Source: Henricia sp. BOLD:AAB3569
Taxonomy: Eukaryota; Echinodermata; Asteroidea; Spinulosida; Echinasteridae
NCBI GenBank assembly: GCA_037783545.1
Contig: JBBELK010001208.1
Location: forward strand, 124,001 to 188,000
Length of the DNA stretch: 64,000 bases
Reading direction: 5' to 3'
The notes under the pieces were generated by a model. It saw only the letters and a list, made by a program, of their open reading frames with translations, did not search any database and was not told where the DNA came from. Below are positions 1 to 64,000 of the stretch, in pieces (position 1 is the stretch's first letter; every line of letters begins with the position of its first letter). The position numbers were made by a program, and so were the translations under genes.

Positions 1-220
1 GAGCAGTCAGGAAGCCCCAACCCAGTTTTCCCTAAACTTTGAAATTTCTCTGCCATTTCCCGGCGAAAGTGTGTCAATTTTTTAGGACAAGTGCGCAATA
101 TAGAGAGTTTGGAGCATGCAAAATTTGAAGTTCGTCGGAACATTTTTCGACCTCCAAATTTGCCGACGTTTGGACCACACTTTGACCAAATTGCCGAGCC
201 AAACTGGGCTGCGTCAACGA

Positions 221-235
221 CAGTCCGAAGGACTG
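221..235. other. Perfect short dyad, one per monomer
   Basis: CAGTCC-GAA-GGACTG: a 6-bp perfect stem with a 3-nt loop. It recurs at the same place in nearly every monomer across 64 kb. Some variants keep the stem (loop AAA near 15650, 25975 and 28925; loop GAG near 34440, 37355 and 41435). Others break one pair: CAGTCGGAAGG, common at 16.8-41 kb; GAATGACTG at 49.6-60 kb; CATTCC at 50.5-63.8 kb. It could be a protein-binding dyad, a hairpin or cruciform, or simple sequence chance; no function is shown. Confidence 0.8.
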
Positions 236-255
236 AGCATTCGCACGACTCAGGA

Positions 256-276
256 GTACACCAAAGAGGTGTGTAC
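256..276. other. Imperfect stem-loop, one per monomer
   Basis: GTACACC, loop AAAGA, then GGTGTGTAC. The right arm carries an extra GT, so the stem is bulged. It lies 20 bp after the perfect dyad in each monomer. One copy at 14196-14214 lacks two bases and forms a perfect 7-bp stem. Four copies (38.5, 42.6, 43.8 and 45.0 kb) have lost nine bases covering part of the left arm and the loop. Function is unknown. Confidence 0.65.
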
Positions 277-3032
277 AGACAGCCACGGTGTGCGTGAGCA
301 GTCAGGAAGCCCCAACCCAGTTTTCCCTAAACTTTGAAATTTCTCTGCATTTCCCGGCGAAAGTTTGTCAATTTTTTAGGACAAGTGCGCAATCTAGAGA
401 GTTTGGAGCAAGCAAAATTTGAAGTTCGTCGGAACATTTTTCGACCTCCAAATTTGCCGACGTTTGGACCACACTTTGACCAAATTGCCGAGCCAAACTG
501 GGCTGCGTCAACGACAGTCCGAAGGACTGAGCATGCGCACGACTCAGGAGTACACCAAAGAGGTGTGTACAGATAGCCACGGTGTGCGTGAGCAGTCAGG
601 AAGCCCCAACCCAGTTTTCCCTAAACTTTGAAATTTCTCTGCCATTTCCCGGCGAAAGTTTGTCAATTTTTTAGGACAAGTGCGCAATATAGAGAGTTTG
701 GAGCATGAAAAATTTGAAGTTCTTCGGAACATTTTTCGACCTCCAAATTTTCCGACGTTTGGACAACACTTTGACCAAATTGCCGAGCCAAACTGGGCTG
801 CGTCAACGACAGTCCGAAGGACTGAGCATGCGCACGACTCATGAGTACACCAAAGAGGTGTGTACAGACAGCCACGGTGTGCGTGAGCAGTCAGGAAGCC
901 CCAACCCAGTTTTCCCTAAACTTTGAAATTTCTCTGCCATTTCCCGGCGAAAGTTTGTCAATTTTTTAGGACAAGTGCGCAATATAGAGAGTTTGGAGCA
1001 TGCAACATTTGAAGTTCGTCGGAACATTTTTCGACCTCCAAATTTGCCGACGTTTGGACCACACTTTGACCAAATTGCCGAGCCAAACTGGGCTGCGTCA
1101 ACGACAGTCCGAAGGACTGAGCATGCGCACGACTCAGGAGTACACCAAAGAGGTGTGTACAGACAGCCACGGTGTGCGTGAGCAGTCAGGAAGCCCCAAC
1201 CCAGTTTTCCCTAAACTTTGAAAATTCTGCCATTTCCCGGCGAAAGTTTGTCAATTTTTTAGGACAAGTGCGCAATATAGAAAGTTTGGAGCATGCAAAA
1301 TTTGAAGTTCGTCGGAACATTTTTCGACCTCCAAATTTGCCGACGTTTGGACCACACTTTGACCAAATTGCCGAGCCAAACTGGGCTGCGTCAACGACAG
1401 TCCGAAGGACTGAGCATGCGCACGACTCAGGAGTACACCAAAGAGGTGTGTACAGACAGCCACGGTTTGCGTGAGCAGTCAGGACGCCCCAACCCAGTTT
1501 TCCCTAAACTTTGAAATTTCTCTGCCATTTCCCGGCGAAAGTCTGTCAATTTTTTAGGACAAGTGCGCAATATAGAGAGTTTGGAGCATGCAAAATCTGA
1601 AGTTCGTCGGAACATTTTTCGACCTCCAAATTTGCCGACGTTTGGACCACACTTTGACCAAATTGCCGAGCCAAACTGGGCTGCGTCAACAACAGTCCGA
1701 AGGACTGAGCATGCGCACGACTCAGGAGTACACCAAAGAGGTGTGTACAGACAGCCACGGTGTGCGTGAGCAGTCAGGAAGCCCCAACCCAGTTTTCCCT
1801 AAACTTTGAAATTTCTCTGCCATTTCCCGGCGAAAGTCTGTCAATTTTTTAGGACAAGTGCGCAATTTAGAGAGTTTGGAGCAAGCAAAATTTGAAGTTC
1901 GTCGGAAAATTTTTCGACCTCCAAATTTGCCGACGTTTGGACCACACTTTGACCAAATTGCCGAGCCAAACTGGGCTGCGTCAACGACAGTCCGAAGGAC
2001 TGAGCATGCGCACGACCCAGGAGTACACCAAAGAGGTTTGTACAGACAGCCACGGTGTGCGTGAGCAGTCAGGAAGCCCCAACCCAGTTTTTCCCTAAAC
2101 TTTGAAATTTCTCTGCCAATTCCCCGCGAAAGTCTGTCAATTTTTTAGGACAAGTGCGCAATATAGAGAGTTTGGAGCATGCACAATTTGAAGTTCGTCG
2201 GAACATTTTTCGACCTCCAAATTTGCCGACGTTTGGACCACACTTTGACCAAATTGCCGAACCAAACTGGGCTGCGTCAACGACAGTCCGAAGGACTGAG
2301 CATGCGCACGACTCAGGAGTACACCAAAGAGGTGTGTACAGACAGCCACGGTTTGCGTGAGCAGTCAGGAAGCCCCAACCCAGTTTTCCCTAAACTTTGA
2401 AATTTCTCTGCCATTACCCGGCGAAAGTCTGTCAATTTTTTAGGACAAGTGCGCAATCTAGAGAGTTTGGAGCAAGCAAAATTTGAAGTTCGTCGGAAAA
2501 TGTTTCAACCTCCAAATTTGCCGACGTTTGGACAACACTTTGACCAAATTGCCGAGCCAAACTGGGCTGCGTCAACGACAGTCCGAAGGACTGAGCATGC
2601 GCACGACTCAGGAGTACACCAAAGAGGTGTGTACAGACAGCCATGGTGTGCGTGAGCAGTCAGGAAGCCCCAACCCAGTTTTCCCTAAACTTTGAAATTT
2701 CTCTGCCATTTCCCGGCGAAAGTGTGTCAATTTTTTAGGACAAGTGCGCAATATAGAGAGTTTGGAGCATGCAAAATTTGAAGTTCGTCGGAACATTTTT
2801 CGACCTCCAAATTTGCCGACGTTTGGACCACACTTTGACCAAATTGCCGAGCCAAACTGGGCTGCGTCAACGACAGTCCGAAGGACTGAGCATTCGCACG
2901 ACTCAGGAGTACACCAAAGAGGTGTGTACAGACAGCCACGGTGTGCGTGAGCAGTCAGGAAGCCCCAACCCAGTTTTCCCTAAACTTTGAAATTTCTCTG
3001 CCATTTCCCGGCGAAAGTTTGTCAATTTTTTA

Positions 3033-5944: not shown

Positions 5945-7336
5945 GGACAAGTGCGCAATATAGAGAGTTTGGAGCATGCAAAATTTGAAGTTCGTCGGAA
6001 CATTTTTCGACCTCCAAATTTGCCGACGTTTGGACCACACTTTGACCAAATTGCCGAGCCAAACTGGGCTGCGTCAACGACAGTCCGAAGGACTGAGCAT
6101 GCGCACGACTCAGAAGTACACCAAAGAGGTGTGTACAGACAGCCACGGTTTGCGTGAGCAGTCAGGAAGCCCCAACCCAGTTTTCCATAAACTTTGAAAT
6201 TTCTCTGCCATTTCCCGGCCAAAGTCTGTCAATTGTTTAGGACAAGTGCGCAATATAGAGAGTTTGGAGCATGCAAAATTTGAAGTTCTTCGGAACACTT
6301 TTCGACCTCCAAATTTTCCGACGTTTGGACCACACTTTGACCAAATTGCCGAGCCAAACTGGGCTGCGTCAACGACAGTCCGAAGGACTGAGCATGCGCA
6401 CGACTCATGAGTACACCAAAGAGGTGTGTACAGACAGCCACGGTGTGCGTGAGCAGTTAGGAAGCCCCAACCCAGTTTTCCCTAAACTTTGAAATTTCTC
6501 TGCCATTTCCCGGCGAAAGTTTGTCAATTTTTTAGGACAAGTGCGCAATATAGAGAGTTTGGAGCATGCAAAATTTGAAGTTCGTCGGAACATTTTTCGA
6601 CCTCCAAATTTGCCGACGTTTGGACCACACTTTGACCAAATTGCCGAGCCAAACTGGGCTGCGTCAACGACAGTCCGAAGGACTGAGCATTCGCACGACT
6701 CAGGAGTACACCAAAGAGGTGTGTACAGACAGCCACGGTGTGCGTGAGCAGTCAGGAAGCCCCAACCCAGTTTTCCCTAAACTTTGAAATTTCTCTGCCA
6801 TTTCCCGGCGAAAGTTTGTCAATTTTTTTAGGACAAGTGCGCAATATAGAAAGTTTGGAGCATGCAAAATTTGAAGTTCGTCGGAACATTTTTCGACCTC
6901 CAAATTTGCCGACGTTTGGACCACACGTTGACCAAATTGCCGAGCCAAACTGGGCTGCGTCAACGACAGTCCGAAGGACTGAGCATGCGCACGACTCAGG
7001 AGAGCACCAAAGAGGTTTGTACAGACAGCCACGGTGTGCGTGAGCAGTCAAGAAGCCCCAACCCAGTTTTCCCTAAACTTTGAAATTTCTCTGCCAATTC
7101 CCCGCGAAAGTCTGTCAATTTTTTAGGACAAGTGCGCAATATAGAGAGTTTGGAGCATGCACAATTTGAAGTTCGTCGGAACATTTTTCGACCTCCAAAT
7201 TTGCCGACGTTTGGACCACACGTTGACCAAATTGCCGAGCCAAACTGGGCTGCGTCAACGACAGTCCGAAGGACTGAGCATGCGCACGACTCAGGAGTAC
7301 ACCAAAGAGGTGTGTACAGACAGCCACGGTTTGCGT

Positions 7337-7512
7337 GAGCAGTCAGGAAGCCCCAACCCAGTTTTCCCTAAACTTTGAAATTTATCTGCCATTTCTTGGC
7401 GAAAGTCTGTCAATTTTTTAAGACAAGTGCGCAATATAGAGAGTTTGGAGCATGCAAAATTTGAAGTTCGTCGGAACATTTTTCGATCTCCAAATTTGCC
7501 GACGGTTTGCGT
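7337..7512. repeat. Truncated 176-bp monomer
   Basis: Lacks 119 bp: the sequence runs from TTTGCCGAC straight into GGTTTGCGTGAG, so both the dyad and the second stem-loop are lost. The deletion ends share short similarity (CGACGTTTG versus CACGGTTTG). Copied at 9163-9338. Confidence 0.9.
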
Positions 7513-8397
7513 GAGCAGTCAGGAAGCCCCAACCCAGTTTTCCCTAAACTTTGAAATTTCTCTGCCATTTCCCGGCGAAAGTCTGTCAATTTTTTAGGAC
7601 AAGTGCGCAATATAAAGAGTTTGGAGCATGCAAAATTTGAAGTTCGTCGGAACATTTTTCGACCTCCAAATTTGCCGACGTTTGGACCACACTTTGACCA
7701 AATTGCCGAGCCAAACTGGGCGGCGTCAACGACAGTCCGAAGGACTGAGCATGCGCACGACTCAGGAGTACACCAAATAGGTGTGTACAGACAGCCACGG
7801 TTTGGGGGAGCAGTCAGGAAGCCCCAACCCAGTTTTCCCTAAACTTTGAAATTTCTCTGCCATTTCCCTGCGAAAGTCTGTAAATTTGTTAAGACAAGTG
7901 CGCAATATAGAGAGTTTGGAGCATGCAAAATTTGAAGTTCGTCGGAACATTTTTCGACCTCCAAATTTGCCGACGTTTGGACCACACTTTGACCAAATTG
8001 CCGAGCCAAACTGGGCTGCGTCAACGACAGTCCGAAGGACTGAGCATGCGCACGACTCAGGAGTACACCAAAGAGGTGTGTACAGACAGCCACGGTTTGC
8101 GTGAGCAGTCAAGAAGCCCCAACCCAGTTTTCCCTAAACTTTGAAATTTCTCTGCCATTTCCCTGCGAAAGTCTGTAATTTTTTTAGGACAAGTGCGCAA
8201 TATAGAGAGTTTGGAGCATGCAAAATTTGAAGTTCGTCGGAACATTTTTCGACCTCCAAATTTGCCGACGTTTGGACCACACTTTGACCAAATTGCCGAG
8301 CCAAACTGGGCTGCGTCGACGACAGTCCGAAGGACTGAGCATGCGCACGACTCAGGAGTACACCAAAGAGGTGTGTACAGACAGCCACGGTTTGCGT

Positions 8398-8572
8398 GAG
8401 CAGTCAGGAAGCCCCAACCCAGTTTTCCCTAAACTTTGAAATTTCTCTGCCATTTCTCGGCGAAAGTCTGTCAATTTGTTAGGACAAGTGCGCAATATAG
8501 AGAGTTTGAGCATGCAAAATTTGAAGTTTGTCTGAACATTTTTCGACCTCCAAATTTGCCGACGGTTTGCGT
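8398..8572. repeat. Truncated 175-bp monomer
   Basis: Same internal deletion as the monomer at 7337-7512, with one further base lost (GAGTTTGAGC). Copied at 10224-10398. The shared junction shows that the two truncated monomers within one 1826-bp unit descend from a single event. Confidence 0.9.
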
Positions 8573-9083
8573 GAGCAGTCAGGAAGCCCCAACCCAGTTT
8601 TCCCTAAACTTTGAAATTTCTCTGCCATTTCCTGGCGAAAGTCTGTCATTTTTTTAGGACAAGTGCGCAATATAGAGAGTTTGGAGCATGCAAAATTTGA
8701 AGTTCGTCGGAACATTTTTCGACCTCCAAATTTGCCGACGTTTGGACCACACTTTGACCAAATTGCCGAGCCAAATTGGGCTGCGTCAACGACAGTCCGA
8801 AGGACTGAGCATGCGCACGACTCAGGAGAACACCAAAGAGGTGTGTACAGACAGCCACGATTTGCGTGAGCAGTCAGGAAGCCCCAACCCAGTTTTCCCT
8901 AAACTTTGAAATTTCTCTTCTATTTCCTGGCGAAAGTCTGTCAATTTTTTAGGACAAGTGCGCAATATAGAGAGTTTGGAGCATGCCAAAGTTGAAGTTC
9001 GTCGGAACATTTTTCGACCTCCAAATTTGCCGACGTTTGGACCACACTTTGACCAAATTGCCGAGCCAAACTGGGCTGCGTCG

Positions 9084-10909
9084 ACGACAGTCCGAAGGAC
9101 TGAGCATGCGCACGACTCAGGAGTACACCAAAGAGGTGTGTACAGACAGCCACGGTTTGCGTGAGCAGTCAGGAAGCCCCAACCCAGTTTTCCCTAAACT
9201 TTGAAATTTATCTGCCATTTCTTGGCGAAAGTCTGTCAATTTTTTAAGACAAGTGCGCAATATAGAGAGTTTGGAGCATGCAAAATTTGAAGTTCGTCGG
9301 AACATTTTTCGATCTCCAAATTTGCCGACGGTTTGCGTGAGCAGTCAGGAAGCCCCAACCCAGTTTTCCCTAAACTTTGAAATTTCTCTGCCATTTCCCG
9401 GCGAAAGTCTGTCAATTTTTTAGGACAAGTGCGCAATATAAAGAGTTTGGAGCATGCAAAATTTGAAGTTCGTCGGAACATTTTTCGACCTCCAAATTTG
9501 CCGACGTTTGGACCACACTTTGACCAAATTGCCGAGCCAAACTGGGCGGCGTCAACGACAGTCCGAAGGACTGAGCATGCGCACGACTCAGGAGTACACC
9601 AAATAGGTGTGTACAGACAGCCACGGTTTGGGGGAGCAGTCAGGAAGCCCCAACCCAGTTTTCCCTAAACTTTGAAATTTCTCTGCCATTTCCCTGCGAA
9701 AGTCTGTAAATTTGTTAAGACAAGTGCGCAATATAGAGAGTTTGGAGCATGCAAAATTTGAAGTTCGTAGGAACATTTTTCGACCTCCAAATTTGCCGAC
9801 GTTTGGACCACACTTTGACCAAATTGCCGAGCCAAACTGGGCTGCGTCAACGACAGTCCGAAGGACTGAGCATGCGCACGACTCAGGAGTACACCAAAGA
9901 GGTGTGTACAGACAGCCACGGTTTGCGTGAGCAGTCAAGAAGCCCCAACCCAGTTTTCCCTAAACTTTGAAATTTCTCTGCCATTTCCCTGCGAAAGTCT
10001 GTAATTTTTTTAGGACAAGTGCGCAATATAGAGAGTTTGGAGCATGCAAAATTTGAAGTTCGTCGGAACATTTTTCGACCTCCAAATTTGCCGACGTTTG
10101 GACCACACTTTGACCAAATTGCCGAGCCAAACTGGGCTGCGTCGACGACAGTCCGAAGGACTGAGCATGCGCACGACTCAGGAGTACACCAAAGAGGTGT
10201 GTACAGACAGCCACGGTTTGCGTGAGCAGTCAGGAAGCCCCAACCCAGTTTTCCCTAAACTTTGAAATTTCTCTGCCATTTCTCGGCGAAAGTCTGTCAA
10301 TTTGTTAGGACAAGTGCGCAATATAGAGAGTTTGAGCATGCAAAATTTGAAGTTTGTCTGAACATTTTTCGACCTCCAAATTTGCCGACGGTTTGCGTGA
10401 GCAGTCAGGAAGCCCCAACCCAGTTTTCCCTAAACTTTGAAATTTCTCTGCCATTTCCTGGCGAAAGTCTGTCATTTTTTTAGGACAAGTGCGCAATATA
10501 GAGAGTTTGGAGCATGCAAAATTTGAAGTTCGTCGGAACATTTTTCGACCTCCAAATTTGCCGACGTTTGGACCACACTTTGACCAAATTGCCGAGCCAA
10601 ATTGGGCTGCGTCAACGACAGTCCGAAGGACTGAGCATGCGCACGACTCAGGAGTACACCAAAGAGGTGTGTACAGACAGCCACGATTTGCGTGAGCAGT
10701 CAGGAAGCCCCAACCCAGTTTTCCCTAAACTTTGAAATTTCTCTTCTATTTCCTGGCGAAAGTCTGTCAATTTTTTAGGACAAGTGCGCAATATAGAGAG
10801 TTTGGAGCATGCCAAAGTTGAAGTTCGTCGGAACATTTTTCGACCTCCAAATTTGCCGACGTTTGGACCACACTTTGACCAAATTGCCGAGCCAAACTGG
10901 GCTGCGTCG
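9084..10909. repeat. 1826-bp higher-order unit, copy 2
   Basis: Tandem copy of 7258-9083 with the same order of full and truncated monomers. The boundary is set by a TCAACG/TCGACG difference at 7257 versus 9083. Confidence 0.9.
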
Positions 10910-14463: not shown

Positions 14464-14476
14464 AGGACTGAGCATG
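14464..14476. repeat. Target-site duplication, left copy
   Basis: AGGACTGAGCATG, 13 bp, is part of the satellite monomer and is repeated perfectly at 14767-14779 on the other side of the SINE. This is the direct sign of target-primed insertion. Confidence 0.95.
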
Positions 14477-14494
14477 TTGTTGTTGTTGTTGTTG
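14477..14494 (-). repeat. (CAA)6 tail of the SINE
   Basis: Six TTG units on the plus strand, directly against the left target-site duplication. A simple-repeat 3' tail is usual for tRNA SINEs mobilised by a LINE. The clean tail and perfect duplication suggest a fairly young insertion. Confidence 0.9.
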
Positions 14495-14699
14495 TATATT
14501 TTATGGCATCTTCGGCAACTAAGGCCCTTTATGCCATCAACTATACGGTTTTAGCTTTAACTATACTATATTATCAACTTGAGATGACGAAGAAGGAGTT
14601 GCAGTTTTAGAAGTGGGAGGAAAACCCCCAGAGAAATGCCCCAGGGGAAAACCCACGCGGTCAAGTAGGGACTGCAAACCCAATCCACATACACGCCCC

Positions 14700-14710
14700 G
14701 GATTCGAACC
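14700..14710 (-). promoter_or_regulatory. Pol III B box of the SINE
   Basis: Minus strand GGTTCGAATCC, a perfect match to the GGTTCGANTCC consensus of tRNA and tRNA-derived SINE internal promoters. Confidence 0.93.
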
Positions 14711-14742
14711 CGGGACCCCAGAGGTGAAAGGCGAGGAAAGAA

Positions 14743-14753
14743 CCCGTACGCCA
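14743..14753 (-). promoter_or_regulatory. Pol III A box of the SINE
   Basis: Minus strand TGGCGTACGGG matches 9 of 11 positions of TGGCNNAGTGG. It starts 13 nt inside the SINE 5' end and 43 nt before the B box, normal tRNA-like spacing. The two mismatches mean promoter strength is uncertain. Confidence 0.75.
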
Positions 14754-14766
14754 ACCCGACCGCCCC

Positions 14767-14779
14767 AGGACTGAGCATG
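14767..14779. repeat. Target-site duplication, right copy
   Basis: AGGACTGAGCATG, identical to 14464-14476. It keeps only the right arm of the monomer dyad; the left side of the insertion keeps the whole dyad. Confidence 0.95.
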
Positions 14780-23536: not shown

Positions 23537-23794
23537 AACCTCCAAATTTGCCGACGTTTGGACCACACTTTGACCAAATTGCCGAGCCAAACTGGGCTGC
23601 GTCAACGACAGTCGGAAGGACTGAGCATGCGCACGACTCAGGAGTACACCAAAGAGGTGTGTACAGACAGCCACGGTTTGTGTGAACAGTCAGGAAGCCC
23701 CAACCCAGTTTTTCCTAAACTGTGAAATGTCTCTGCCATTTTCCGGCGAAAGTCTGTCAATTTTTTAGGACAAGTGCGCAATATAAAGAGTTTC

Positions 23795-26744
23795 GAGCAT
23801 GCAAAATTTGAAGTTCGTCGGAACATTTTTCGACCTCCAAATTTGCCGACGTTTGGACCACACTTTGACCAAATTGCCGAGCCAAACTGGGCTGCGTCAA
23901 CGACAGTCGGAAGGACTGAGCATGCGCACGACTCAGGAGTACACCAAAGAGGTGTGTACAGACAGCCACGATGTGCGTGAGCAGTCAGGAAGCCCCAACC
24001 CAGTTTTCCCTAAACTGTGAAATGTCTCTGCCATTTTCCGGCGAAAGTCTGTCAATTTTTTAGGACAAGTGCGCAATATAGAGAGTTTCGAGCATGCAAA
24101 ATTTGAAGTTCGTCGGAACATTTTTCGACCTTCAAATTTGCCGACGTTTGGACCACACTTTGACCAAGTTGCGGAGCCAAACTGGGTTGCGTCAACGACA
24201 GTCCGAAGGACTGAGCATGCGCACGACTCAGGAGTACACCAAAGAGGTGTGTACAGACAGCCACGGTTTGCGTGAGCAGTCAGGAAGCCCCAACCCAGTT
24301 TTCCCTGAACTTTGAAATTTCTCTGCCATTTCCCGGCGAAAGTTTGTCAATTTTTTAGGACAAGTGCGCAATATAGAGAGTTTGGAGCATGCAATATTTG
24401 AAGTTCGTCGGAACATTTTTCAACCTCCAAATTTGCCGACGTTTGGACCATACTTTGACCAAATTGCCGAGCCAAACTAGGCTGCGTCAACGACAGTCCG
24501 AAGGACTGAGCATGCGCACGACTCAGGAGTACACCAAAGAGGTGTGTACAGACAGCCACGGTTTGCGTGAGCAGTCAGGAAGCCCCAACCCAGTTTTCCC
24601 TAAACTTTGAAATTTCTCTGCCATTTCCCGGCGAAAGTCTGTCAATTGTTTAGGACAAGTGTGCAATATAGAGAGTTTGGAGCATGCAAAATTTGAAGTT
24701 CGTCGGAACATTTTTCGACCTCCAAATTTGCCGACGTTTGGACCACACTTTGACCAAATTGCCGAGCCAAACTGGGCTGCGTCAACGACAGTCGGAAGGA
24801 CTGAGCATGCGCACGACTCAGGAGTACACCAAAGAGGTGTGTACAGACAGCCACGGTTTGTGTGAACAGTCAGGAAGCCCCAACCCAGTTTTCCCTAAAC
24901 TGTGAAATGTCTCTGCCATTTTCCGGCGAAAGTCTGTCAATTTTTTAGGACAAGTGCGCAATATAGAGAGTTTCGAGCATGCAAAATTTGAAGTTCGTCG
25001 GAACATTTTTCGACCTTCAAATTTGCCGACGTTTGGACCACACTTTGACCCAATTGCCGAGCTAAACTGGGCTGCGTCAACGACAGTCCGAAGGACTGAG
25101 CATGCGCACGACTCAGGAGTACACCAAAGAGGTGTGTACAGACAGCCACGGTTTGTGTGAACAGTCAGGAAGCCCCAACCCAGTTTTCCCTAAACTTTGA
25201 AATATCTCTGCCATTTCCCGGCGAAAGTCTGTCAATTTTTTAGGACAAGTGCGCAATATAGAGAGTTTGGAGCATGCAAAATTTGAAGTTCGTCCGAACA
25301 TTTTTCGGCCTCCAAATTTGCCGACGTTTGGACCACACTTTGACCCAATTGCCGAGCCAAACTGGGCTGCGTCAACGACAGTCCGAAGGACTGAGCATGC
25401 GCACGACTCAGAAGTACACCAAAGAGGTGTGTACAGACAGCCACGGTTTGCGTGAGCAGTCAGGAAGCCCCAACCCAGTTTTCCCTAAACTTTGAAATTT
25501 ATCTGCCATTTCCCGGCGAAAGTCTGTCAATTGTTTAGGACAAGTGCGCAATATAGAAAGTTTGGAGCATGCAAAATTTGAAGTTCGTCGGAACATTTTT
25601 CGACCTCCAAATTTGCCGACGTTTGGACCACACTTTGACCAAATTGCCGAGCCAAACTGGGCTGCGTCAACGACAGTCCGAAGGACTGAGCATGCGCACG
25701 ACTCAGAAGTACACCAAAGAGGTGTGTACAGACAGCCACGGTTTGCGTGAGCAGTCAGGAAGCCCCAACCCAGTTTTCCCTAAACTTTGAAATTTCTCTG
25801 CCATTTCCCGGCGAAAGTCTGTCAATTGTTTAGCACAAGTACGCAATATAGAGAGTTTGGAGCATGCAAAATTTGAAGTTCGTCGGAACATTTTTCGACC
25901 TCCAAATTTGCCAACGTTTGGACCACACTTTGACCAAATTGCCGAGCCAAACTGGGCTGCGTCAACGACAGTCCAAAGGACTGAGCATGCGCACGACTCA
26001 GGAGTACACCAAAGAGGTGTGTACAGACAGCCACGATGTGCGTGAGCAGTCAGGAAGCCCCAACCCAGTTTTCCCTAAACTTTGAAATTTCTCTGCCATT
26101 TCCCGGCGAAGGTTTGTCAATTTTTTGGGACAAGTGCGCAATATAGAGAGTTTGGAGCATGCAATATTTGAAGTTCGTCGGAACATTTTTCGACCTCCAA
26201 ATTTGCCGACGTTTGGACCATACTTTGACCAAATTGCCGAGCCAAACTAGGCTGCGTCAACGACAGTCCGAAGGACTGAGCATGCGCACGACTCAGGAGT
26301 ACACCAAAGAGGTGTGTACAGACAGCCACGGTTTGCGTGAGCAGTCAGGAAGCCCCAACCCAGTTTTCCCTAAACTTTGAAATTTCTCTGCCATTTCCCG
26401 GCGAAAGTCTGTCAATCTTTTAGGACAAGTGCGCAATATAGAGAGTTTGGAGCATGCAAAATTTGAAGTTCGTCGGAACATTTTTCGACCTCCAAATTTG
26501 CCGACGTTTGGACCACACTTTGACCAAATTGCCGAGCTAAACTGGGCTGCGTCAACGACAGTCCGAAGGACTGAGCATGCGCACGACTCAGAAGTACACC
26601 AAAGAGGTGTGTACAGACAGCCACGGTTTGTGTGAGCAGTCAGGAAGCCCCAACCCAGTTTTCCCTAAACTTTGAAATTTCTCTTCCATTTCCCGGCGAA
26701 AGTCTGTCAATTGTTTAGGACAAGTGCGCAATATAGAGAGTTTG
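23795..26744. repeat. Ten-monomer (2950-bp) higher-order unit, copy 1
   Basis: Exactly 10 x 295 bp; repeated in tandem at 26745-29694, with identity continuing to 29870. Marker variants CACGATGTGCG, TTAGCACAAGTACGC, CGTCCGAACATTTTTCGGCC and CAATCTTTTAGG recur in the same order in both copies. Only scattered single-base differences are seen. Confidence 0.88.
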
Positions 26745-35294: not shown

Positions 35295-35352
35295 ATCAAC
35301 GACAGTCCGAAGGACTGAGCATGCGCACGACTCAGGAGTACACCAAAGAGGT
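34487..35352. repeat. 866-bp trimer, copy 1
   Basis: Three monomers less 19 bp. Directly followed by a second copy at 35353-36218, and present again from about 37399, 39448 and 41482. It holds the 19-bp-deleted monomer, a CCCGAAGAAAG monomer with GACAACCACGG, and a TTTGACAAAATTG monomer. Confidence 0.87.
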
Positions 35353-36218: not shown

Positions 36219-36360
36219 GTGTACAGACAGCCACGGTTTGCGTGAGCAGTCAGGAAGCCCCAACCCAGTTTTCCCTAAACTTTGAAATCTCTCTGCCATT
36301 TCCCGGCGAAAGTCTGTCAATTTTTTAGGACAAGTGCGCAATATAGAGAGTTTGGAGGAG

Positions 36361-39300
36361 GCAAAATTTGAAGTTCGTCGGAACATTTTTCGACCTCCAA
36401 ATTTGCCGACGTTTGGACCACACTTTGACCAAATTGCCGAGCCAAACTGGGCTGCGTCAAAGACAGTCCGAAGGACTGAGCATGCGCACGACTCAGAAGT
36501 ACACCAAAGAGGTGTGTACAGACAGCCACGGTTTGCGTGAGCAGTCAGGAAGCCCCAACCCAGTTTTCCCTAAACTTTGAAATTTCTCTGCCATTTCCCG
36601 GCGAAAGTCTGTCAATTGTTTAGGACAAGTGCGCAATATAGAGAGTTTGGAGCATGCAAAATTTGAAGTTCGTCGGAACATTTTTCGACCTCCAAATTTG
36701 CCGACGTTTGGACCACACTTTGACCAAATTGCCGAGCCAAACTGGGCTGCGTCAACTACAGTCGGAAGGACTGAGCATGCGCACGACTCAGGAGTACACC
36801 AAAGAGGTGTGTACAGACAGCCACGGTTTGTGTGAACAGTCAGGAAGCCCCAACCCAGTTTTCCGTAAACTGTGAAATGTCTCTGCCATTTTCCGGCGAA
36901 AGTCTGTCAATTTTTTAGGACAAGTGCGCAATATAGAGAGTTTCGAGCATGCAAAATTTGAAGTTCGTCGGAACATTTTTCGACCTTCAAATTTGCCGAC
37001 GTTTGGACCACACTTTGACCAAGTTGCCGAGCCAAACTGGGCTGCGTGAACGACAGTCCGAAGGACTGAGCATGCGCACGACTCAGGAGTACACCAAAGA
37101 GGTGTGTACAGACAGCCACGGTTTGCGTGAGCAGTCAGGAAGCCCCAACCCAGTTTTCCCTAAACTTTGAAATTTCTCTGCCATTTCCCGGCGAAAGTCT
37201 GTCAATTTTTTAGGACAAGTGCGCAATATAGAGAGTTTGGAGCATGCAAAATTTGAAGTTCGTCCGAACATTTTTCGGCCTCCAAATTTGCCGACGTTTG
37301 GACCACACTTTGACCAAATTGCCGAGCCAAACTGTGCTGCGTCAACGACAGTCCGAGGGACTGAGCATGCGCACGACTCAGGAGTGCACCAAAGAGCTGT
37401 GTACAGACAGCCACGGTTTGCGTGAGCAGTCAGGAAGCCCCAACCCAGTTTTCCCTAAACTTTGAAATTTCTCTGCCATTTCCCGGCGAAAGTCTGTCAA
37501 TTTTTTAGGACAAGTGCGCAATCTAGAGAGTTTGGAGCAAGCAACATTTTTCGACCTCCAAATTTGCCGACGTTTGGACCACACTTTGACCAAATTTCCG
37601 AGCCAAACTGGGCTGCGTCAACGACAGTCCGAAGGACTGAGCATGCGCACGACTCAGGAGTACACCAAAGAGGTGTGTACAGACAGCCACGGTTTGCGTG
37701 AGCAGTCAGGAAGCCCCAACCCAGTTTTCCCTAAACTTTGAAATTTCTCTGCCATTTCCCGAAGAAAGTCTGTCAATTTTTTAGGACAAGTGCGCAATAT
37801 AGAGAGTTTGGAGCATGCAAAATTTGAAGTTCGTCGGAACATTTTTCGACCTCCAAATTTGCCGACGTTTGGACCACACTTTGACCAAATTGCCGAGCCA
37901 AACTGGGCTGCGTCAACGACAGTCCGAAGGACTGAGCATGCGCACGACTCAGGAGTACACCAAAGAGGTGTGTACAGACAACCACGGTTTGCGTGAGCAG
38001 TCAGGAAGCCCCAACCCAGTTTTCCCTAAACTTTGAAATTTCTCTGCCATTTCCCGGCGAAAGTCTGTCAATTTTTTAGGACAAGTGCGCAATATAGAGA
38101 GTTTGGAGCATGCAAAATTTGAAGTTCGTCGGAACATTTTTCGACCTCCAAATTTGCCGACGTTTGGACCACACTTTGACAAAATTGCCGAGCCAAACTG
38201 GGCTGCGTCAACGACAGTCCGAAGGACTGAGCATGCGCACGACTCAGGAGTACACCAAAGAGGTGTGTACAGACAGCCACGGTTTGCGTGAGCAGTCAGG
38301 AAGCCCCAACCCAGTTTTCCCTAAACTTTGAAATCTCTCTGCCATTTCCCGGCGAAAGTCTGTCAATTTTTTAGGACAAGTGCGCAATATAGAGAGTTTG
38401 GAGCATGCAAAATTTGAAGTTCGTCGGAACATTTTTCGACCTCCAAATTTGCCGACGTTTGGACCACACTTTGACCAAATTGCCGAGCCAAACTGGGCTG
38501 CGTCAAAGACAGTCCGAAGGACTGAGCATGCGCACGACTCAGGAGTAGGTGTGTGCAGACAGCCACGGTTTGCGTGAGCAGTCAGGAAGCCCCAACCCAG
38601 TTTTCCCTAAACTTTGAAAATTCTCTGCCATTTCCCCGCGAAAGTCTGTCAATTTTTTAGGACAAGTGCGCAATATAGAGAGTTTGGAGCATGCAAAATT
38701 TGAAGTTCGTCGGAACATTTTTCGACCTCCAAATTTGCCGACGTTTGGACCACACTTTGACCAAATTGCCGAGCCAAACTGGGCTGCGTCAACGACAGTC
38801 CGAAGGACTGAGCATGCGCACGACTCAGGAGTACACCAAAGAGGTGTGTACAGACAGCCACGGTTTGCGTGAGCAGTCAGGAAGCCCCAACCCAGTTTTC
38901 CCTAAACTTTGAAATTTCTCTGCCATTTCCCAGGGAAAGTCTGTCAATTTTTTAGGAAAAGTGCGCAATATAGAGAGTTTGGAGCATGCAAAATTTGAAG
39001 TTCGTCGGAACATTTTTCGACCTCCAAATTTGCCGACGTTTGGACCATACTTTGACCAAATTTCCGAGCTAAACTGGGCTGCGTCAACGACAGTCCGAAG
39101 GACTGAGCATGCGCACGACTCAGGAGTACACCAAAGAGGTGTGTACAGACAGCCACGGTTTGCGTGAGCAGTCAGGAAGCCCCAACCCAGTTTTCCCTAA
39201 ACTTTGAAATTTCTCTGCCATTTCCCAGGGAAAGTCTGTCAATTTTTTAGGAAAAGTGCGCAATATAGAGAGTTTGGAGCATGCAAAATTTGAAGTTCGT

Positions 39301-39446
39301 CGGAACATTTTTCGACCTCCAAATTTGCCGACGTTTGGACCATACTTTGACCAAATTTCCGAGCTAAACTGGGCTGCGTCAACGACAGTCCGAAGGACTG
39401 AGCATGCGCACGACTCAGGAGTACACCAAAGAGGTGTGTACAGACA
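36361..39446. repeat. 3086-bp block at 4083-bp offset, copy 1
   Basis: Near-identical to 40444-43529. It includes the second copy of the 1716-bp block, one 866-bp trimer, a monomer with a 9-bp deletion (38547/38548) and a doublet of CCCAGGGAAAG monomers (about 38931-39446). Confidence 0.88.
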
Positions 39447-40443
39447 ACCACGGTTTGCGTGAGCAGTCAGGAAGCCCCAACCCAGTTTTCCCTAAACTTT
39501 GAAATTTCTCTGCCATTTCCCGGCGAAAGTCTGTCAATTTTTTAGGACAAGTGCGCAATCTAGAGAGTTTGGAGCAAGCAACATTTTTCGACCTCCAAAT
39601 TTGCCGACGTTTGGACCACACTTTGACCAAATTTCCGAGCCAAACTGGGCTGCGTCAACGACAGTCCGAAGGACTGAGCATGCGCACGACTCAGGAGTAC
39701 ACCAAAGAGGTGTGTACAGACAGCCACGGTTTGCGTGAGCAGTCAGGAAGCCCCAACCCAGTTTTCCCTAAACTTTGAAATTTCTCTGCCATTTCCCGAA
39801 GAAAGTCTGTCAATTTTTTAGGACAAGTGCGCAATATGGAGAGTTTGGAGCATGCAAAATTTGAAGTTCGTCGGAACATTTTTCGACCTCCAAATTTGCC
39901 GACGTTTGGACCACACTTTGACCAAATTGCCGAGCCAAACTGGGCTGCGTCAACGACAGTCCGAAGGACTGAGCATGCGCACGACTCAGGAGTACACCAA
40001 AGAGGTGTGTACAGACAACCACGGTTTGCGTGAGCAGTCAGGAAGCCCCAACCCAGTTTTCCCTAAACTTTGAAATTTCTCTGCCATTTCCCGGCGAAAG
40101 TCTGTCAATTTTTTAGGACAAGTGCGCAATATAGAGAGTTTGGAGCATGCAAAATTTGAAGTTCGTCGGAACATTTTTCGACCTCCAAATTTGCCGACGT
40201 TTGGACCACACTTTGACAAAATTGCCGAGCCAAACTGGGCTGCGTCAACGACAGTCCGAAGGACTGAGCATGCGCACGACTCAGGAGTACACCAAAGAGG
40301 TGTGTACAGACAGCCACGGTTTGCGTGAGCAGTCAGGAAGCCCCAACCCAGTTTTCCCTAAACTTTGAAATCTCTCTGCCATTTCCCGGCGAAAGTCTGT
40401 CAATTTTTTAGGACAAGTGCGCAATATAGAGAGTTTGGAGCAT

Positions 40444-43400
40444 GCAAAATTTGAAGTTCGTCGGAACATTTTTCGACCTCCAAATTTGCCGACGTTTGGA
40501 CCACACTTTGACCAAATTGCCGAGCCAAACTGGGCTGCGTCAAAGACAGTCCGAAGGACTGAGCATGCGCACGACTCAGAAGTACACCAAAGAGGTGTGT
40601 ACAGACAGCCACGGTTTGCGTGAGCAGTCAGGAAGCCCCAACCCAGTTTTCCCTAAACTTTGAAATTTCTCTGCCATTTCCCGGCGAAAGTCTGTCAATT
40701 GTTTAGGACAAGTGCGCAATATAGAGAGTTTGGAGCATGCAAAATTTGAAGTTCGTCGGAACATTTTTCGACCTCCAAATTTGCCGACGTTTGGACCACA
40801 CTTTGACCAAATTGCCGAGCCAAACTGGGCTGCGTCAACTACAGTCGGAAGGACTGAGCATGCGCACGACTCAGGAGTACACCAAAGAGGTGTGTACAGA
40901 CAGCCACGGTTTGTGTGAACAGTCAGGAAGCCCCAACCCAGTTTTCCGTAAACTGTGAAATGTCTCTGCCATTTTCCGGCGAAAGTCTGTCAATTTTTTA
41001 GGACAAGTGCGCAATATAGAGAGTTTCGAGCATGCAAAATTTGAAGTTCGTCGGAACATTTTTCGACCTTCAAATTTGCCGACGTTTGGACCACACTTTG
41101 ACCAAGTTGCCGAGCCAAACTGGGCTGCGTGAACGACAGTCCGAAGGACTGAGCATGCGCACGACTCAGGAGTACACCAAAGAGGTGTGTACAGACAGCC
41201 ACGGTTTGCGTGAGCAGTCAGGAAGCCCCAACCCAGTTTTCCCTAAACTTTGAAATTTCTCTGCCATTTCCCGGCGAAAGTCTGTCAATTTTTTAGGACA
41301 AGTGCGCAATATAGAGAGTTTGGAGCATGCAAAATTTGAAGTTCGTCCGAACATTTTTCGGCCTCCAAATTTGCCGACGTTTGGACCACACTTTGACCAA
41401 ATTGCCGAGCCAAACTGTGCTGCGTCAACGACAGTCCGAGGGACTGAGCATGCGCACGACTCAGGAGTGCACCAAAGAGCTGTGTACAGACAGCCACGGT
41501 TTGCGTGAGCAGTCAGGAAGCCCCAACCCAGTTTTCCCTAAACTTTGAAATTTCTCTGCCATTTCCCGGCGAAAGTCTGTCAATTTTTTAGGACAAGTGC
41601 GCAATCTAGAGAGTTTGGAGCAAGCAACATTTTTCGACCTCCAAATTTGCCGACGTTTGGACCACACTTTGACCAAATTTCCGAGCCAAACTGGGCTGCG
41701 TCAACGACAGTCCGAAGGACTGAGCATGCGCACGACTCAGGAGTACACCAAAGAGGTGTGTACAGACAGCCACGGTTTGCGTGAGCAGTCAGGAAGCCCC
41801 AACCCAGTTTTCCCTAAACTTTGAAATTTCTCTGCCATTTCCCGAAGAAAGTCTGTCAATTTTTTAGGACAAGTGCGCAATATAGAGAGTTTGGAGCATG
41901 CAAAATTTGAAGTTCGTCGGAACATTTTTCGACCTCCAAATTTGCCGACGTTTGGACCACACTTTGACCAAATTGCCGAGCCAAACTGGGCTGCGTCAAC
42001 GACAGTCCGAAGGACTGAGCATGCGCACGACTCAGGAGTACACCAAAGAGGTGTGTACAGACAACCACGGTTTGCGTGAGCAGTCAGGAAGCCCCAACCC
42101 AGTTTTCCCTAAACTTTGAAATTTCTCTGCCATTTCCCGGCGAAAGTCTGTCAATTTTTTAGGACAAGTGCGCAATATAGAGAGTTTGGAGCATGCAAAA
42201 TTTGAAGTTCGTCGGAACATTTTTCGACCTCCAAATTTGCCGACGTTTGGACCACACTTTGACAAAATTGCCGAGCCAAACTGGGCTGCGTCAACGACAG
42301 TCCGAAGGACTGAGCATGCGCACGACTCAGGAGTACACCAAAGAGGTGTGTACAGACAGCCACGGTTTGCGTGAGCAGTCAGGAAGCCCCAACCCAGTTT
42401 TCCCTAAACTTTGAAATCTCTCTGCCATTTCCCGGCGAAAGTCTGTCAATTTTTTAGGACAAGTGCGCAATATAGAGAGTTTGGAGCATGCAGAATTTGA
42501 AGTTCGTCGGAACATTTTTCGACCTCCAAATTTGCCGACGTTTGGACCACACTTTGACCAAATTGCCGAGCCAAACTGGGCTGCGTCAAAGACAGTCCGA
42601 AGGACTGAGCATGCGCACGACTCAGGAGTAGGTGTGTGCAGACAGCCACGGTTTGCGTGAGCAGTCAGGAAGCCCCAACCCAGTTTTCCCTAAACTTTGA
42701 AAATTCTCTGCCATTTCCCCGCGAAAGTCTGTCAATTTTTTAGGACAAGTGCGCAATATAGAGAGTTTGGAGCATGCAAAATTTGAAGTTCGTCGGAACA
42801 TTTTTCGACCTCCAAATTTGCCGACGTTTGGACCACACTTTGACCAAATTGCCGAGCCAAACTGGGCTGCGTCAACGACAGTCCGAAGGACTGAGCATGC
42901 GCACGACTCAGGAGTACACCAAAGAGGTGTGTACAGACAGCCACGGTTTGCGTGAGCAGTCAGGAAGCCCCAACCCAGTTTTCCCTAAACTTTGAAATTT
43001 CTCTGCCATTTCCCAGGGAAAGTCTGTCAATTTTTTAGGAAAAGTGCGCAATATAGAGAGTTTGGAGCATGCAAAATTTGAAGTTCGTCGGAACATTTTT
43101 CGACCTCCAAATTTGCCGACGTTTGGACCATACTTTGACCAAATTTCCGAGCTAAACTGGGCTGCGTCAACGACAGTCCGAAGGACTGAGCATGCGCACG
43201 ACTCAGGAGTACACCAAAGAGGTGTGTACAGACAGCCACGGTTTGCGTGAGCAGTCAGGAAGCCCCAACCCAGTTTTCCCTAAACTTTGAAATTTCTCTG
43301 CCATTTCCCAGGGAAAGTCTGTCAATTTTTTAGGAAAAGTGCGCAATATAGAGAGTTTGGAGCATGCAAAATTTGAAGTTCGTCGGAACATTTTTCGACC

Positions 43401-43529: not shown

Positions 43530-43679
43530 GCCACAGTTTGCGTGAGCAGTCAGGAAGCCCCAACCCAGTTTTCCCTAAACTTTGAAATTTCTCTGCCATT
43601 TCCCGAAGAAAGTCTGTCAATTTTTTAGGACAAGTGCGCAATATAGAGAGTTTGGAGCATGCAAAATTTGAAGTTCGTC

Positions 43680-59200: not shown

Positions 59201-60667
59201 TTGTCAATTTTGTAGGACAAGTGCGCAATATAGAGAGTTTGGAGCATGCAAAATTTGAACATTTTTCGACCTCCAAATTTGCCGACGTTTGGACCACACT
59301 TTGACCAAATTGCCGAGCCAAATTGGGCTGCGTCAACGACATTCCGAAGGACTGAGCATGCGCACGACTCAGGAGTACACCAAAGAGGTGTGTACAGACA
59401 GCCACGGTTTGCGTGAGCAGTCAGGAAGCCCCAACCCAGTTTTTCCTAAACTTTGAAATTTCTCTGCCATTTCCCAAAGAAAGTCTGTCAATTTTTTAGG
59501 ACAAGTGCGCAATATAGAGAGTTTGGAGCATGCAAAATTTGAAGTTCGTCGGAACATTTTTCGACCTCCAAATTTGCCGACGTTTGGACCACACTTTGAC
59601 CAAATTGCCGAGCCAAACTGGGCTGCGTCAACGACAGTCCGAATGACTGAGCATGCGCACGACTCAGGAGTACACCAAAGAGGTGTGTACAGACAGCCAC
59701 GGTTTGCGTGAGCAGTCAGGAAGCCCCAACCCAGTTTTCCCTAAACTTTGAAATTTCTCTTCCATTTCCCGGCGAAAGTCTGTCAATTTTGTAGGACAAG
59801 TGCGCAATATAGAGAGTTTGGAGCATGCAAAATTTGAAGTTCGTCGGAACATTTTTCGACCTCCAAATTTGCCGACGTTTGGACCACACTTTGACCAAAT
59901 TGCCGAGCCAAACTGGGCTGCGTCAACGACAGTCCGAATGACTGAGCATGCGCACGACTCAGGAGTACACCAAAGAGGTGTGTACAGACAGCCACGGTTT
60001 GCGTGAGCAGTCAGGAAGCCCCAACCCAGTTTTCCCTAAACTTTGAAATTTCTCTGCCATTTCCCGGCGAAAGTCTGTCAATTTTTTAGGACAAGTGCGT
60101 AATATAGAGAGTTTGGAGCATGCAAAATTTGAAGTTCGTCGGAACATTTTTCGACCTCCAAATTTGCCGACGTTTGGACCACACTTTGACCAAATTGCCG
60201 AGCCAAACTGGGCTGCGTCAACGACAGTCCGAAGGACTGAGCATGCGCACGACTCAGGAGTACACCAAAGAGGTGTGTACAGACAGCCACGGTTTGCGTG
60301 AGCAGTCAGGAAGCCCCAACCCAGTTTTCCCTAAACTTTGAAATTTCTCTTCCATTTCCCGGCGAAAGTCTGTCAATTTTTTAGGACAAGTGCGCAATAT
60401 AGAGAGTTTGGAGCATGCAAAATTTGAAGTTCGTCGGAACATTTTTCGACCTCCAAATTTGCCGACGTTTGGACCACACTTTGACCAAATTGCCGAGCCA
60501 AACTGGGCTGCGTCAACGACAGTCCGAAGGACTGAGCATGCGCACGACTCAGGAGTACACCAAAGAGGTGTGTACAGACAGCCACGGTTTGCGTAAGCAG
60601 TAAGGAAGCCCCAACCCAGTTTTCCCTAAACTTTGAAATTTCTCTGCCATTTCCCGAAGAAAGTCTG
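56252..60667. repeat. Super-repeat C (4416 bp, 15 monomers)
   Basis: Like A but one monomer shorter, and with a private 11-bp deletion in the monomer 59131-59414. 15 x 295 + 2 - 11 = 4416. It is followed directly by D at an offset of 4416 bp. Confidence 0.87.
59131..59414. repeat. 284-bp monomer with private 11-bp deletion
   Basis: AAATTTGAACATTTTTCG shows 11 bp lost between two GAA motifs. The homologous monomers in A (about 53302) and D (about 63620) are intact. Confidence 0.9.
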
Positions 60668-63600
60668 TCATTTTGTTAGGACAAGTGCGCAATATAGAGA
60701 GTTTGGAGCATGCAAAATTTGAAGTTCGTCGGAACATTTTTCGACCTCCAAATTTGCCGACGTTTGGACCACACTTTGACCAAATTGCCGAGCCAAACTG
60801 GGCTGCGTCAACGACAGTCCGAAGGACTGAGCATGCGCACGACTCAGGAGTACATCAAAGAGGTGTGTACAGACAGCCACGGTTTGCGTGAGCAGTCAGG
60901 AAGCCCCAAACCAGTTTTCCCTAAACTTTGAAATTTCTCTGCCATTTCCCGGCGAAAGTCTGTCAATTTTGTAGGACAAGTGCGCAATATAGAGAGTTTG
61001 GAGCATGCAAAATTTGAAGTTCGTCGGAACATTTTTCGACCTCCAAATTTGCCGACGTTTGGACCACACTTTGACAAAATTGCCGAGCCAAATTGGGCTG
61101 CGTCAACGACATTCCGAAGGACTGAGCATGCGCACGACTCAGGAGTACACCAAAGAGGTGTGTACAGACATCCACGGTTTGCGTGAGCAGTCAGGAAGCC
61201 CCAACCCAGTTTTTCCTAAACTTTGAAATTTCTCTGCCATTTCCCGGCGAAAGTCTGTCAATTTTGTAGGACAAGTGCGCAATATAGAGAGTTTGGAGCA
61301 TGCAAAATTTGAAGTTCGTCGGAACATTTTTCGACCTCCAAATTTGCCGACGTTTGGACCACACTTTGACCAAATTGCCGAGCCAAACTGGGCTGCGTCA
61401 ACGACAGTCCGAAGGACTGAGCATGCGCACGACTCAGGAGTACACCAAAGAGGTGTGTACAGACAGCCACGGTTTGCGTGAGCAGTCAGGAAGCCCCAAC
61501 CCAGTTTTCCCTAAACTTTGAAATTTCTCTGCCATTTCCAGGCGAAAGTCTGTCAATTTTTTAGGACAAGTGCGTAATATAGAGAGTTTGGAGCATGCAA
61601 AATTTGAAGTTCGTCGGAACATTTTTCGACCTCCAAATTTGCCGACGTTTGGACCATACTTTGACCAAATTTCCGAGCTAAACTGGGCTGCGTCAACGAC
61701 AGTCCGAAGGACTGAGCATGCGCACGACTCAGGAGTACACCAAAGAGGTGTGTACAGACAGCCACGGTTTGCGTGAGCAGTCAGGAAGCCCCAACCCAGT
61801 TTTCCCTAAACTTTGAAATTTCTCTGCCATTTCCCGAAGAAAGTCTGTCAATTTTTTTAGGACAAGTGCGCAATATAGAGAGTTTGGAGCATGCAAAATT
61901 TGAAGTTCGTCGGAACATTTTTCGACCTCCAAATTTGCCGACGTTTGGACCACACTTTGACCAAATTGCCGGGCCAAACTGGGCTGCGTCAACGACAGTC
62001 CGAAGGACTGAGCATGCGCACGACTCAGGAGTACACCAAAGAGGTGTGTACAGACAGCCACGGTTTGCGTGAGCAGTCAGGAAGCCCCAACCCAGTTTTT
62101 CCTAAACTTTGAAATTTCTCTGCCATTTCCCGGCGAAAGTCTGTCAATTTTGTAGGACAAGTGCGCAATATAGAGAGTTTGGAGCATGCAAAATTTGAAG
62201 TTCGTCGGAACATTTTTCGACCTCCAAATTTGCCGACGTTTGGACCACACTTTGACCAAATTGCCGAGCCAAACTGGGCTGCGTCAACGACAGTCCGAAG
62301 GACTGAGCATGCGCACGACTCAGGAGTACACCAAAGAGGTGTGTACAGACAGCCACGGTTTGCGTGAGCAGTCAGGAAGCCCCAACCCAGTTTTCCCTAA
62401 ACTTTGAAATTTCTCTGCCATTTCCAGGCGAAAGTCTGTCAATTTTTTAGGACAAGTGCGTAATATAGAGAGTTTGGAGCATGCAAAATTTGAAGTTCGT
62501 CGGAACATTTTTCGACCTCCAAATTTGCCGACGTTTGGACCACACTTTGACCAAAATTGCCGAGCCAAACTGGGCTGCGTCAACGACAGTCCGAAGGACT
62601 GAGCATGCGCACGACTCAGGAGTACACCAAAGAGGTGTGTACAGACAGCCACGGTTTGCGTGAGCAGTCAGGAAGCCCCAACCCAGTTTTCCCTAAACTT
62701 TGAAATTTCTCTGCCATTTCCCGGCGAAAGTCTGTCATTTTTTTAGGACAAGTGCGCAATATAGAGAGTTTGGAGCATGCAAAATTTGAAGTTCGTCGGA
62801 ACATTTTTCGGCCTCCAAATTTGCCGACGTTTGGACCACACTTTGACCAAATTGCCGAGCCAAACTGGGCTGCGTCAACGACAGTCCGAAGGACTGAGCA
62901 TGCGCACGACTCAGGAGTACACCAAAGAGGTGTGTACAGACAACCACGGTTTGCGTGAGCAGTTAGGAAGCCCCAACCCAGTTTTCCCTAAACTTTGAAA
63001 TTTCTCTGCCATTTCCCGGCGAAAGTCTGTCAATTTTTTAGGACAAGTGCGCAATATAGAGAGTTTGAAGCATGCAAAATTTGAAGTTCGTCGGAACATT
63101 TTTCGATCTCCAAATTTGCCGACGTTTGGACCACACTTTAACCAAATTGTCGAGCCAAACTGGGCTGCGTCAACGACAGTCCGAAGGACTGAGCATGCGC
63201 ACGACTCAGGAGTACACCAAAGAGGTGTGTACAGACAGCCACGGTTTGCGTGAGCAGTCAGGAAGCCCCAACCCAGTTTTCCCTAAACTTTGAAATTTCT
63301 CTGCCATTTCCAGGCGAAAGTCTGTCAATTTTTTAGGACAAGTGCGTAATATAGAGAGTTTGGAGCATGCAAAATTTGAAGTTCGTCGGAACATTTTTCG
63401 ACCTCCAAATTTGCCGACGTTTGGACCACACTTTGACCAAATTGCCGAGCCAAACTGGGCTGCGTCAACGACAGTCCGAAGGACTGAGCATGCGCACGAC
63501 TCAGGAGTACCTCAAAGAGGTGTGTACAGACAGCCACGGTTTGCGTGAGCAGTCAGGAAGCCCCAAACCAGTTTTCCCTAAACTTTGAAATTTCTCTGCC

Positions 63601-64000
63601 ATTTCCCGGCGAAAGTTTGTCAATTTTGTAGGACAAGTGCGCAATATAGAGAGTTTGGAGCATGCAAAATTTGAAGTTCGTCGGAACATTTTTCGACCTC
63701 CAAATTTGCCGACGTTTGGACCACACTTTGACCAAATTGCCGAGCCAAATTGGGCTGCGTCAACGACATTCCGAAGGACTGAGCATGCGCACGACTCAGG
63801 AGTACACCAAAGAGGTGTGTACAGACAGCCACGGTTTGCGTGAGCAGTCAGGAAGCCCCAACCCAGTTTTTCCTAAACTTTGAAATTTCTCTGCCATTTC
63901 CCAAAGAAAGTCTGTCAATTTTTTAGGACAAGTGCGCAATATAGAGAGTTTGGAGCATGCAAAATTTGAAGTTCGTCGGAACATTTTTCGACCTCCAAAT
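60668..64000. repeat. Super-repeat D (partial, runs off the window)
   Basis: Tandem copy of C with very few differences (for example TTTCGGCCTCC near 62808, AAGCATGC near 63069). It lacks the 11-bp deletion of C, so that deletion came after the C/D duplication. It is cut by the window end after about 11 monomers. Confidence 0.87.

What the first reader, a model, noticed from the sequence alone, without database searches (positions are those of the whole stretch)
1..64000. 64-kb satellite array with a 295-bp monomer of unrecognised family
About 217 direct copies with no inverted copy and no gene. I do not recognise the monomer as any satellite I know. The array exceeds the window on both sides, so the true length is unknown. 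Such arrays usually mark centromeric, pericentromeric or subtelomeric heterochromatin.
Basis: partly seen in the sequence, partly recalled or inferred. Interest (0 to 1): 0.7.

Follow-up and report, generated by a model that had tools for sequence, protein, structure and literature searches.

The report
Young satellite DNA in a sea star
The window is one stretch of a long head-to-tail repeat array, an ordinary kind of non-coding chromosome DNA, in what looks like a sea star genome; it may mark a centromere but nothing here proves it.

Summary
The array is real. The window is one head-to-tail 295-bp satellite, 99.5% covered, all in one orientation, monomers 95.8% alike on average. The host has the echinoderm mitochondrial code and a starfish-type tRNA order before COX1, so most likely a sea star; species unknown. 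In the 96 kb sampled of the rest of the 258-kb contig, all is satellite except SINE copies and one young Ty3/gypsy element. The satellite lies on at least 12 contigs, roughly 24,000-32,000 copies, 7-9 Mb, about 1% of the assembly, so a local artefact is unlikely. On contig C766 one array of about 270-295 kb (left edge read, right edge bracketed by point samples) switches orientation. There is no array-wide higher-order repeat, only local block duplications. I found no described match, but Dfam, Repbase and other eukaryote genomes could not be searched. Best reading: an ordinary, recently homogenised satellite of (peri)centromeric heterochromatin. Its chromosomal position was not shown. A new member of a known kind, of low to moderate interest, chiefly as a candidate sea star centromere marker.

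The parts
1..64000 (+). 295-bp satellite array (part of contig C1208), broken only by the SINE listed below
878..1172 (+). one full monomer, used as the query for the folds
14477..14766 (-). tRNA-type SINE insertion (B-box-like GGTTCGAATCC, (CAA)n tail); dispersed family, 3744 exact 26-mer matches in the assembly
14464..14476 (+). left 13-bp target-site duplication of the SINE
14767..14779 (+). right 13-bp target-site duplication of the SINE
35276..39523 (+). stretch 99.8% identical to the DNA 4083 bp (14 monomers) further on: a recent local block duplication
23743..26925 (+). stretch 99.6% identical to the DNA 2950 bp (10 monomers) further on
7163..9222 (+). stretch 99.6% identical to the DNA 1826 bp further on; monomers with a 124-bp deletion (spacing 175-176) lie in it and in its copy
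30462..33029 (+). region with three monomers sharing one 29-bp deletion (266 bp; at 30462, 31023, 32764)
34505..41775 (+). region with five of the seven monomers that share one 19-bp deletion (276 bp; at 34505, 35371, 37417, 39454, 41500; the other two are at 3532 and 4988)

Best explanation
An ordinary satellite DNA of an echinoderm, most likely a sea star, forming the repeated DNA of (peri)centromeric heterochromatin. Shown: long arrays, high sequence homogeneity, local block duplications, young transposon insertions of which some were copied along with the array, and spread over many contigs with nearly one shared consensus. Inferred: arrays grow and stay alike by unequal exchange and conversion-like copying, with some copying between chromosomes; the DNA is packed as heterochromatin; and the arrays sit at or beside centromeres, where being repeated matters more than the sequence itself.
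For: Array through the sampled parts of the 258-kb C1208 and about 270-295 kb on C766. Roughly 24,000-31,700 copies, 7.1-9.4 Mb, 1.0-1.3% of 740.7 Mb. Consensus of C283, C766, C1483 and the right part of C1208 identical, C134 and C180 one change away; the left part of C1208 differs by two or three substitutions. Block duplications at 1826, 2950 and 4083 bp with 99.6-99.8% identity, so homogenisation is recent. Young insertions: SINE copies about 99% alike and an LTR element with 99.8% identical LTRs. Melters et al. [quoted passage not shown]
Against: No CENP-A ChIP, FISH or chromosome map. I could not show that this is the most abundant tandem repeat of the genome. The same paper speaks of often more than 10,000 copies per chromosome for centromere repeats; 24,000-32,000 in the whole assembly is far below that, though satellites collapse in assemblies and the paper also names small centromeres. 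CENP-B box core absent (0 exact in the window; best 7 of 9 in the consensus, reached or passed in 176 of 300 shuffles). Dyad symmetry is weak (14 of 300 shuffles reach it; a first run gave 0 of 40). Short arrays also sit inside long contigs: 16 exact matches near 2.19 Mb of the 4.37-Mb C3 and an array from 196 kb of the 6.62-Mb C46.
Confidence: 0.45

Rival explanations
1. A satellite of subtelomeric or interstitial heterochromatin blocks (knob-like), not of centromeres.
For: Matches lie within about 45 kb of contig ends on C7, C37 and C38, and inside contigs on C3 and C46. Melters et al. note that maize knob repeats outnumber the centromere repeat.
Against: No (TTAGGG)3 in the window or in the satellite loci scanned, while TTAGGG repeats are plentiful in the assembly. 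Contig ends fall in any long repeat.
Confidence: 0.35
2. A tandem repeat that rides inside transposable elements and was amplified from one of them.
For: Satellite-like repeats carried by transposons are reported (Crassostrea Helentrons, PMC7492417, listing only). Transposons lie inside these arrays.
Against: The elements seen are inserted into the satellite, not around it. The monomer shows no RNA-family match and no internal repeat beyond shuffles (self-match 9, shuffled mean 8.9). Dispersed single copies were not searched for.
Confidence: 0.08
3. Assembly artefact: a low-copy repeat inflated by the assembler.
For: The assembly seems to hold a concatemer elsewhere: three COX1 matches of equal score 16,221 bp apart on C955.
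Against: Monomers differ from their consensus by 6.7 changes on average, with shared deletions in some. At least twelve contigs carry it. Exact array lengths may still be wrong.
Confidence: 0.04

Closest known systems
Monomeric (non-HOR) tandem repeats taken as centromere candidates, as surveyed by Melters et al. 2013 (PMC4053949, passages seen)
   Same: Unit of a few hundred bases, head to tail, homogenised, high copy
   Different: Centromere role not tested; rank among this genome's tandem repeats not known; copy number per chromosome probably lower
Tribolium madens TmSat1/TmSat2 arrays with macro-dyad symmetry (PMC13081366, passages seen)
   Same: On C766 one array changes orientation, giving inverted subarrays tens of kb or more long
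   Different: One switch bracketed in one contig, very unequal arms (about 40 kb and 230-250 kb); junction not read; no second satellite seen
Alpha satellite with CENP-B box (recalled)
   Same: Long tandem arrays with local block amplification
   Different: 171-bp unit and CENP-B box absent here; no array-wide higher-order repeat (identity 0.958-0.964 for lags 1-24)

Membership tests
Satellite DNA | Long head-to-tail array of a non-coding unit | tested here: met
Satellite DNA | High copy number at several genomic places | tested here: met
   21,098 exact 26-mer matches on at least 12 contigs
Satellite DNA | Homogenised monomers (concerted evolution) | tested here: met
   95.8% in the window; 95.2-97.5% within and 94.0-97.1% between nine samples of six contigs
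Centromeric satellite | Bound by CENP-A chromatin | not testable with these tools
   needs ChIP or CUT&RUN
Centromeric satellite | Present at the primary constriction of most chromosomes | not testable with these tools
   contigs are not placed on chromosomes
CENP-B-box satellites (alpha satellite type) | CENP-B box core NTTCGNNNNANNCGGGN (motif recalled) | tested here: not met
   0 exact on both strands of the window; best 7 of 9 core positions in the consensus, as in shuffles
Higher-order-repeat satellites | Multi-monomer unit repeated through the array | tested here: not met
   identity flat over lags 1-24 in the window; only local blocks
Subtelomeric satellites | Next to telomere repeats | tested here: inconclusive
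   none in the window or the satellite loci scanned, but chromosome ends were not examined
Ribozyme or RNA-gene-derived satellites | Match to a known RNA family | tested here: not met
   0 matches to 4227 Rfam families up to E = 1 in window 1-2000

The most novel reading that the evidence does not exclude
This is the centromere satellite of a sea star, about one array of 250-400 kb per chromosome, each with an orientation switch that makes a macro-dyad like that of Tribolium. It would be a sequence handle on echinoderm centromeres in a classic oocyte-meiosis model.
Probability: 0.15. Interest if true: 0.5.

Novelty: new member of a known kind. Interest (0 to 1): 0.22.

Why it matters
If it is the centromere repeat, it gives a probe and a ChIP target for sea star centromeres; the rows I saw in the paper listings showed no description of one. 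Otherwise it is one more species-level satellite, useful for karyotyping and for explaining where the assembly breaks.

Tried and rejected
Rfam on window 1-2000: no match; on 14200-15000: two weak matches far below their gathering scores. Single-strand folding of one monomer: DNA z -1.46, RNA z -0.86, not notable. Internal subrepeats: no better than shuffles. CENP-B box: no. Dyads: 0 of 40 shuffles reached the best score at first, but 14 of 300 did in the larger run, and 38 of 300 had at least as many perfect stems; I treat this as weak. WW dinucleotide spectrum: strongest short periods 11.3 and 21.1, no control run, so not used. Plant telomere repeat: one site only, which turned me away from a plant. 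Literature by unit length: nothing on this repeat in the rows seen. Mitochondrial length search for the species: one unrelated paper. Starfish genome papers, passages only: Zoroaster (PMC10394057) does not mention satellites or centromeres; Asterias amurensis (PMC11090083) gives 1.80% satellite without naming a repeat; the satellite-finder preprint PMC10153287 used Marthasterias glacialis reads, but the passages show no unit. Searches of viral, prokaryote, plasmid and phage collections: no match.

The DNA search with the SINE gave no match although the SINE is in the genome, presumably because that tool skips very common words; a pattern count was used instead.

Full report
OBSERVATION. The window repeats with period 295: self-identity is 0.859 at lag 295, and Tandem Repeats Finder reports one array over 1-64000 with 216.5 copies. 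An anchor word (up to 5 errors) occurs 219 times on the + strand and never on the - strand. The consensus is 295 bp, 48.5% G+C. The mean pairwise identity is 95.8% (lowest 76.9%) over 213 of 218 monomers; four short ones and one with an insert were dropped before the alignment. Identity does not depend on the distance between monomers (0.958-0.964 for lags 1-24), so there is no array-wide higher-order repeat. There are local block duplications at offsets of 1826, 2950 and 4083 bp with 99.6-99.8% identity, and families of monomers that share one deletion: 19 bp in seven monomers, 29 bp in three, 124 bp in four, 9 bp in four; two more deletions (35 and 11 bp) are single.

A consensus dimer leaves 290 bases of the window uncovered. 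They are a SINE in reverse orientation at 14477-14766 with a 13-bp target-site duplication. It has a tRNA-type B-box-like word and a (CAA)n tail; ARAGORN finds no tRNA gene in it, and that it is tRNA-derived is my reading. A 26-base word of it occurs 3744 times in the assembly, in both orientations; the first 100 places listed lie on 14 contigs. Three copies about 99% identical to it lie at C1208 55.3-61.3 kb; two of these share almost the same flanks (99.9% over 1187 bases), so they were probably copied together with the array rather than inserted one by one.

THE GENOME. The window is contig C1208:124001-188000 of a 740.7-Mb assembly of 2104 contigs. It has 33,443 forward and 31,257 reverse matches of (TTAGGG)5, against one site with (TTTAGGG)4, which points to an animal. 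COX1 is on a 16,221-bp contig with 11 in-frame TGA codons. All 8 AAA codons of the stretch translated align with asparagine in the best solved COX1 chain, which fits the echinoderm and flatworm mitochondrial code. Before COX1 come tRNA-Leu(-), tRNA-Asn(-), tRNA-Gln(+) and one tRNA(-) just under the Rfam cut-off. [quoted passage not shown] That the order found here is the starfish side of it is my recall of the two gene maps; the same paper groups brittle stars with starfish by gene order and calls ophiuroid orders extensively rearranged. Most likely a sea star; species not identified.

EXTENT. I examined 96 kb of C1208 outside the window in samples: satellite at both contig ends, and everywhere sampled apart from the SINE copies and one 6.58-kb insertion at about 216.9-223.5 kb. 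That insertion is a Ty3/gypsy element with LTRs 99.8% identical and the domain order SCAN, integrase, reverse transcriptase, RNase H, that is, integrase before reverse transcriptase, as I recall for Gmr1-like elements. The left part of C1208 (sampled at 1-10 kb and 100-110 kb) carries another subfamily, with GGAATCCCGA where the window has GGAAGCCCCA. The satellite is on at least 12 contigs: C134, C180, C283, C766, C1208 and C1483 (where 40 of 2253 candidates were scored) and C3, C7, C30, C37, C38 and C46 (first 100 places only). A 26-base word of the monomer has 21,098 exact matches. Calibrated on the window (190 of 216 copies) and on 18 all-satellite 10-kb loci (406 matches in 180 kb), this gives 24,000-31,700 copies, 7.1-9.4 Mb, 1.0-1.3% of the assembly. 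The word misses the other subfamily (0 in the first 10 kb of C1208), so the count is rough.

ONE ARRAY NEARLY BOUNDED. C766 (314.5 kb) begins with 5.2 kb of other DNA at 40% G+C, is satellite at 14 of 15 points or stretches sampled from there to 275 kb (the other point is a SINE tail; one stretch also holds a 1.6-kb insert), and is other DNA at the two 60-base points at 300 kb and near its end. The right edge is thus bracketed, not read; single points can mislead, as on C180, where the point at 240 kb is other DNA but those at 80 and 307.6 kb are satellite. C766 reads minus up to at least 45.06 kb and plus from 47.5 kb on. The 1.6-kb insert at about 70.4-72.0 kb has 35-bp inverted ends. So one array is about 270-295 kb, with inverted subarrays of about 40 and 230-250 kb. 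C134 is satellite in the stretches sampled at 1-10, 75-85 and 100-110 kb and other DNA at the points at 150, 250 and 500 kb of its 763 kb. C283 is satellite at its sampled stretches and points, with a 4.0-kb insert near its start.

HOMOGENEITY. Over 607 monomers of 285-302 bp from nine samples of six contigs (at most 60 per sample used for the pair means; other lengths left out), identity is 95.2-97.5% within and 94.0-97.1% between samples. The consensus is the same in C283, C766, C1483 and the right part of C1208, and differs by one base in C134 and C180. The left part of C1208 differs in 8-10 alignment columns, of which six come from where the monomer was cut and the rest are two to four substitutions. 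Either arrays on different chromosomes exchange sequence, or some contigs are two haplotypes of one place; I could not tell these apart.

FUNCTION. The window has no closed ORF of 200 aa; the monomer has no RNA family match, no CENP-B box, no internal repeat beyond shuffles, and only weak dyad symmetry (14 of 300 shuffles). The best reading is heterochromatic satellite, at or beside centromeres, from abundance and array length. If the haploid number were 22, as in Marthasterias glacialis (22 pseudomolecules, PMC10015122, abstract in the listing), 7.1-9.4 Mb would be about 320-425 kb per chromosome, near the size of the C766 array. That is a suggestive sum, not a test: the species differs, short arrays also lie inside long contigs, and it means only some 1,100-1,400 copies per chromosome, where Melters et al. 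speak of often more than 10,000.

VERDICT. Real, ordinary in kind, undescribed as far as I could search, with position and function untested.

Noticed in passing
L022:898-7473 (contig C1208 about 216.9-223.5 kb): A young Ty3/gypsy element inside the satellite, LTRs 99.8% identical, with a SCAN-like domain and integrase before reverse transcriptase in one 1503-residue frame.
   Followed up: partly
contig C955 (COX1 at 7592, 23813 and 40034): Three COX1 matches of equal score 16,221 bp apart: probably the mitochondrial genome assembled as a concatemer.
   Followed up: no
L029:362-2006 and L025:1691-5695: Inserts with matching inverted ends (TAGTCCATGGGCCAGAGGGGCCCACCGTGCACC...) and G-rich internal tandem repeats (GGGATGGCTTCGGGCTG...) inside the satellite on C766 and C283.
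   Followed up: partly
   Followed up: partly
L011 (C1208:1-10000): A second satellite subfamily fills the sampled left part of the contig; its first 10 kb lack the commonest 26-mer of the window altogether.
   Followed up: partly
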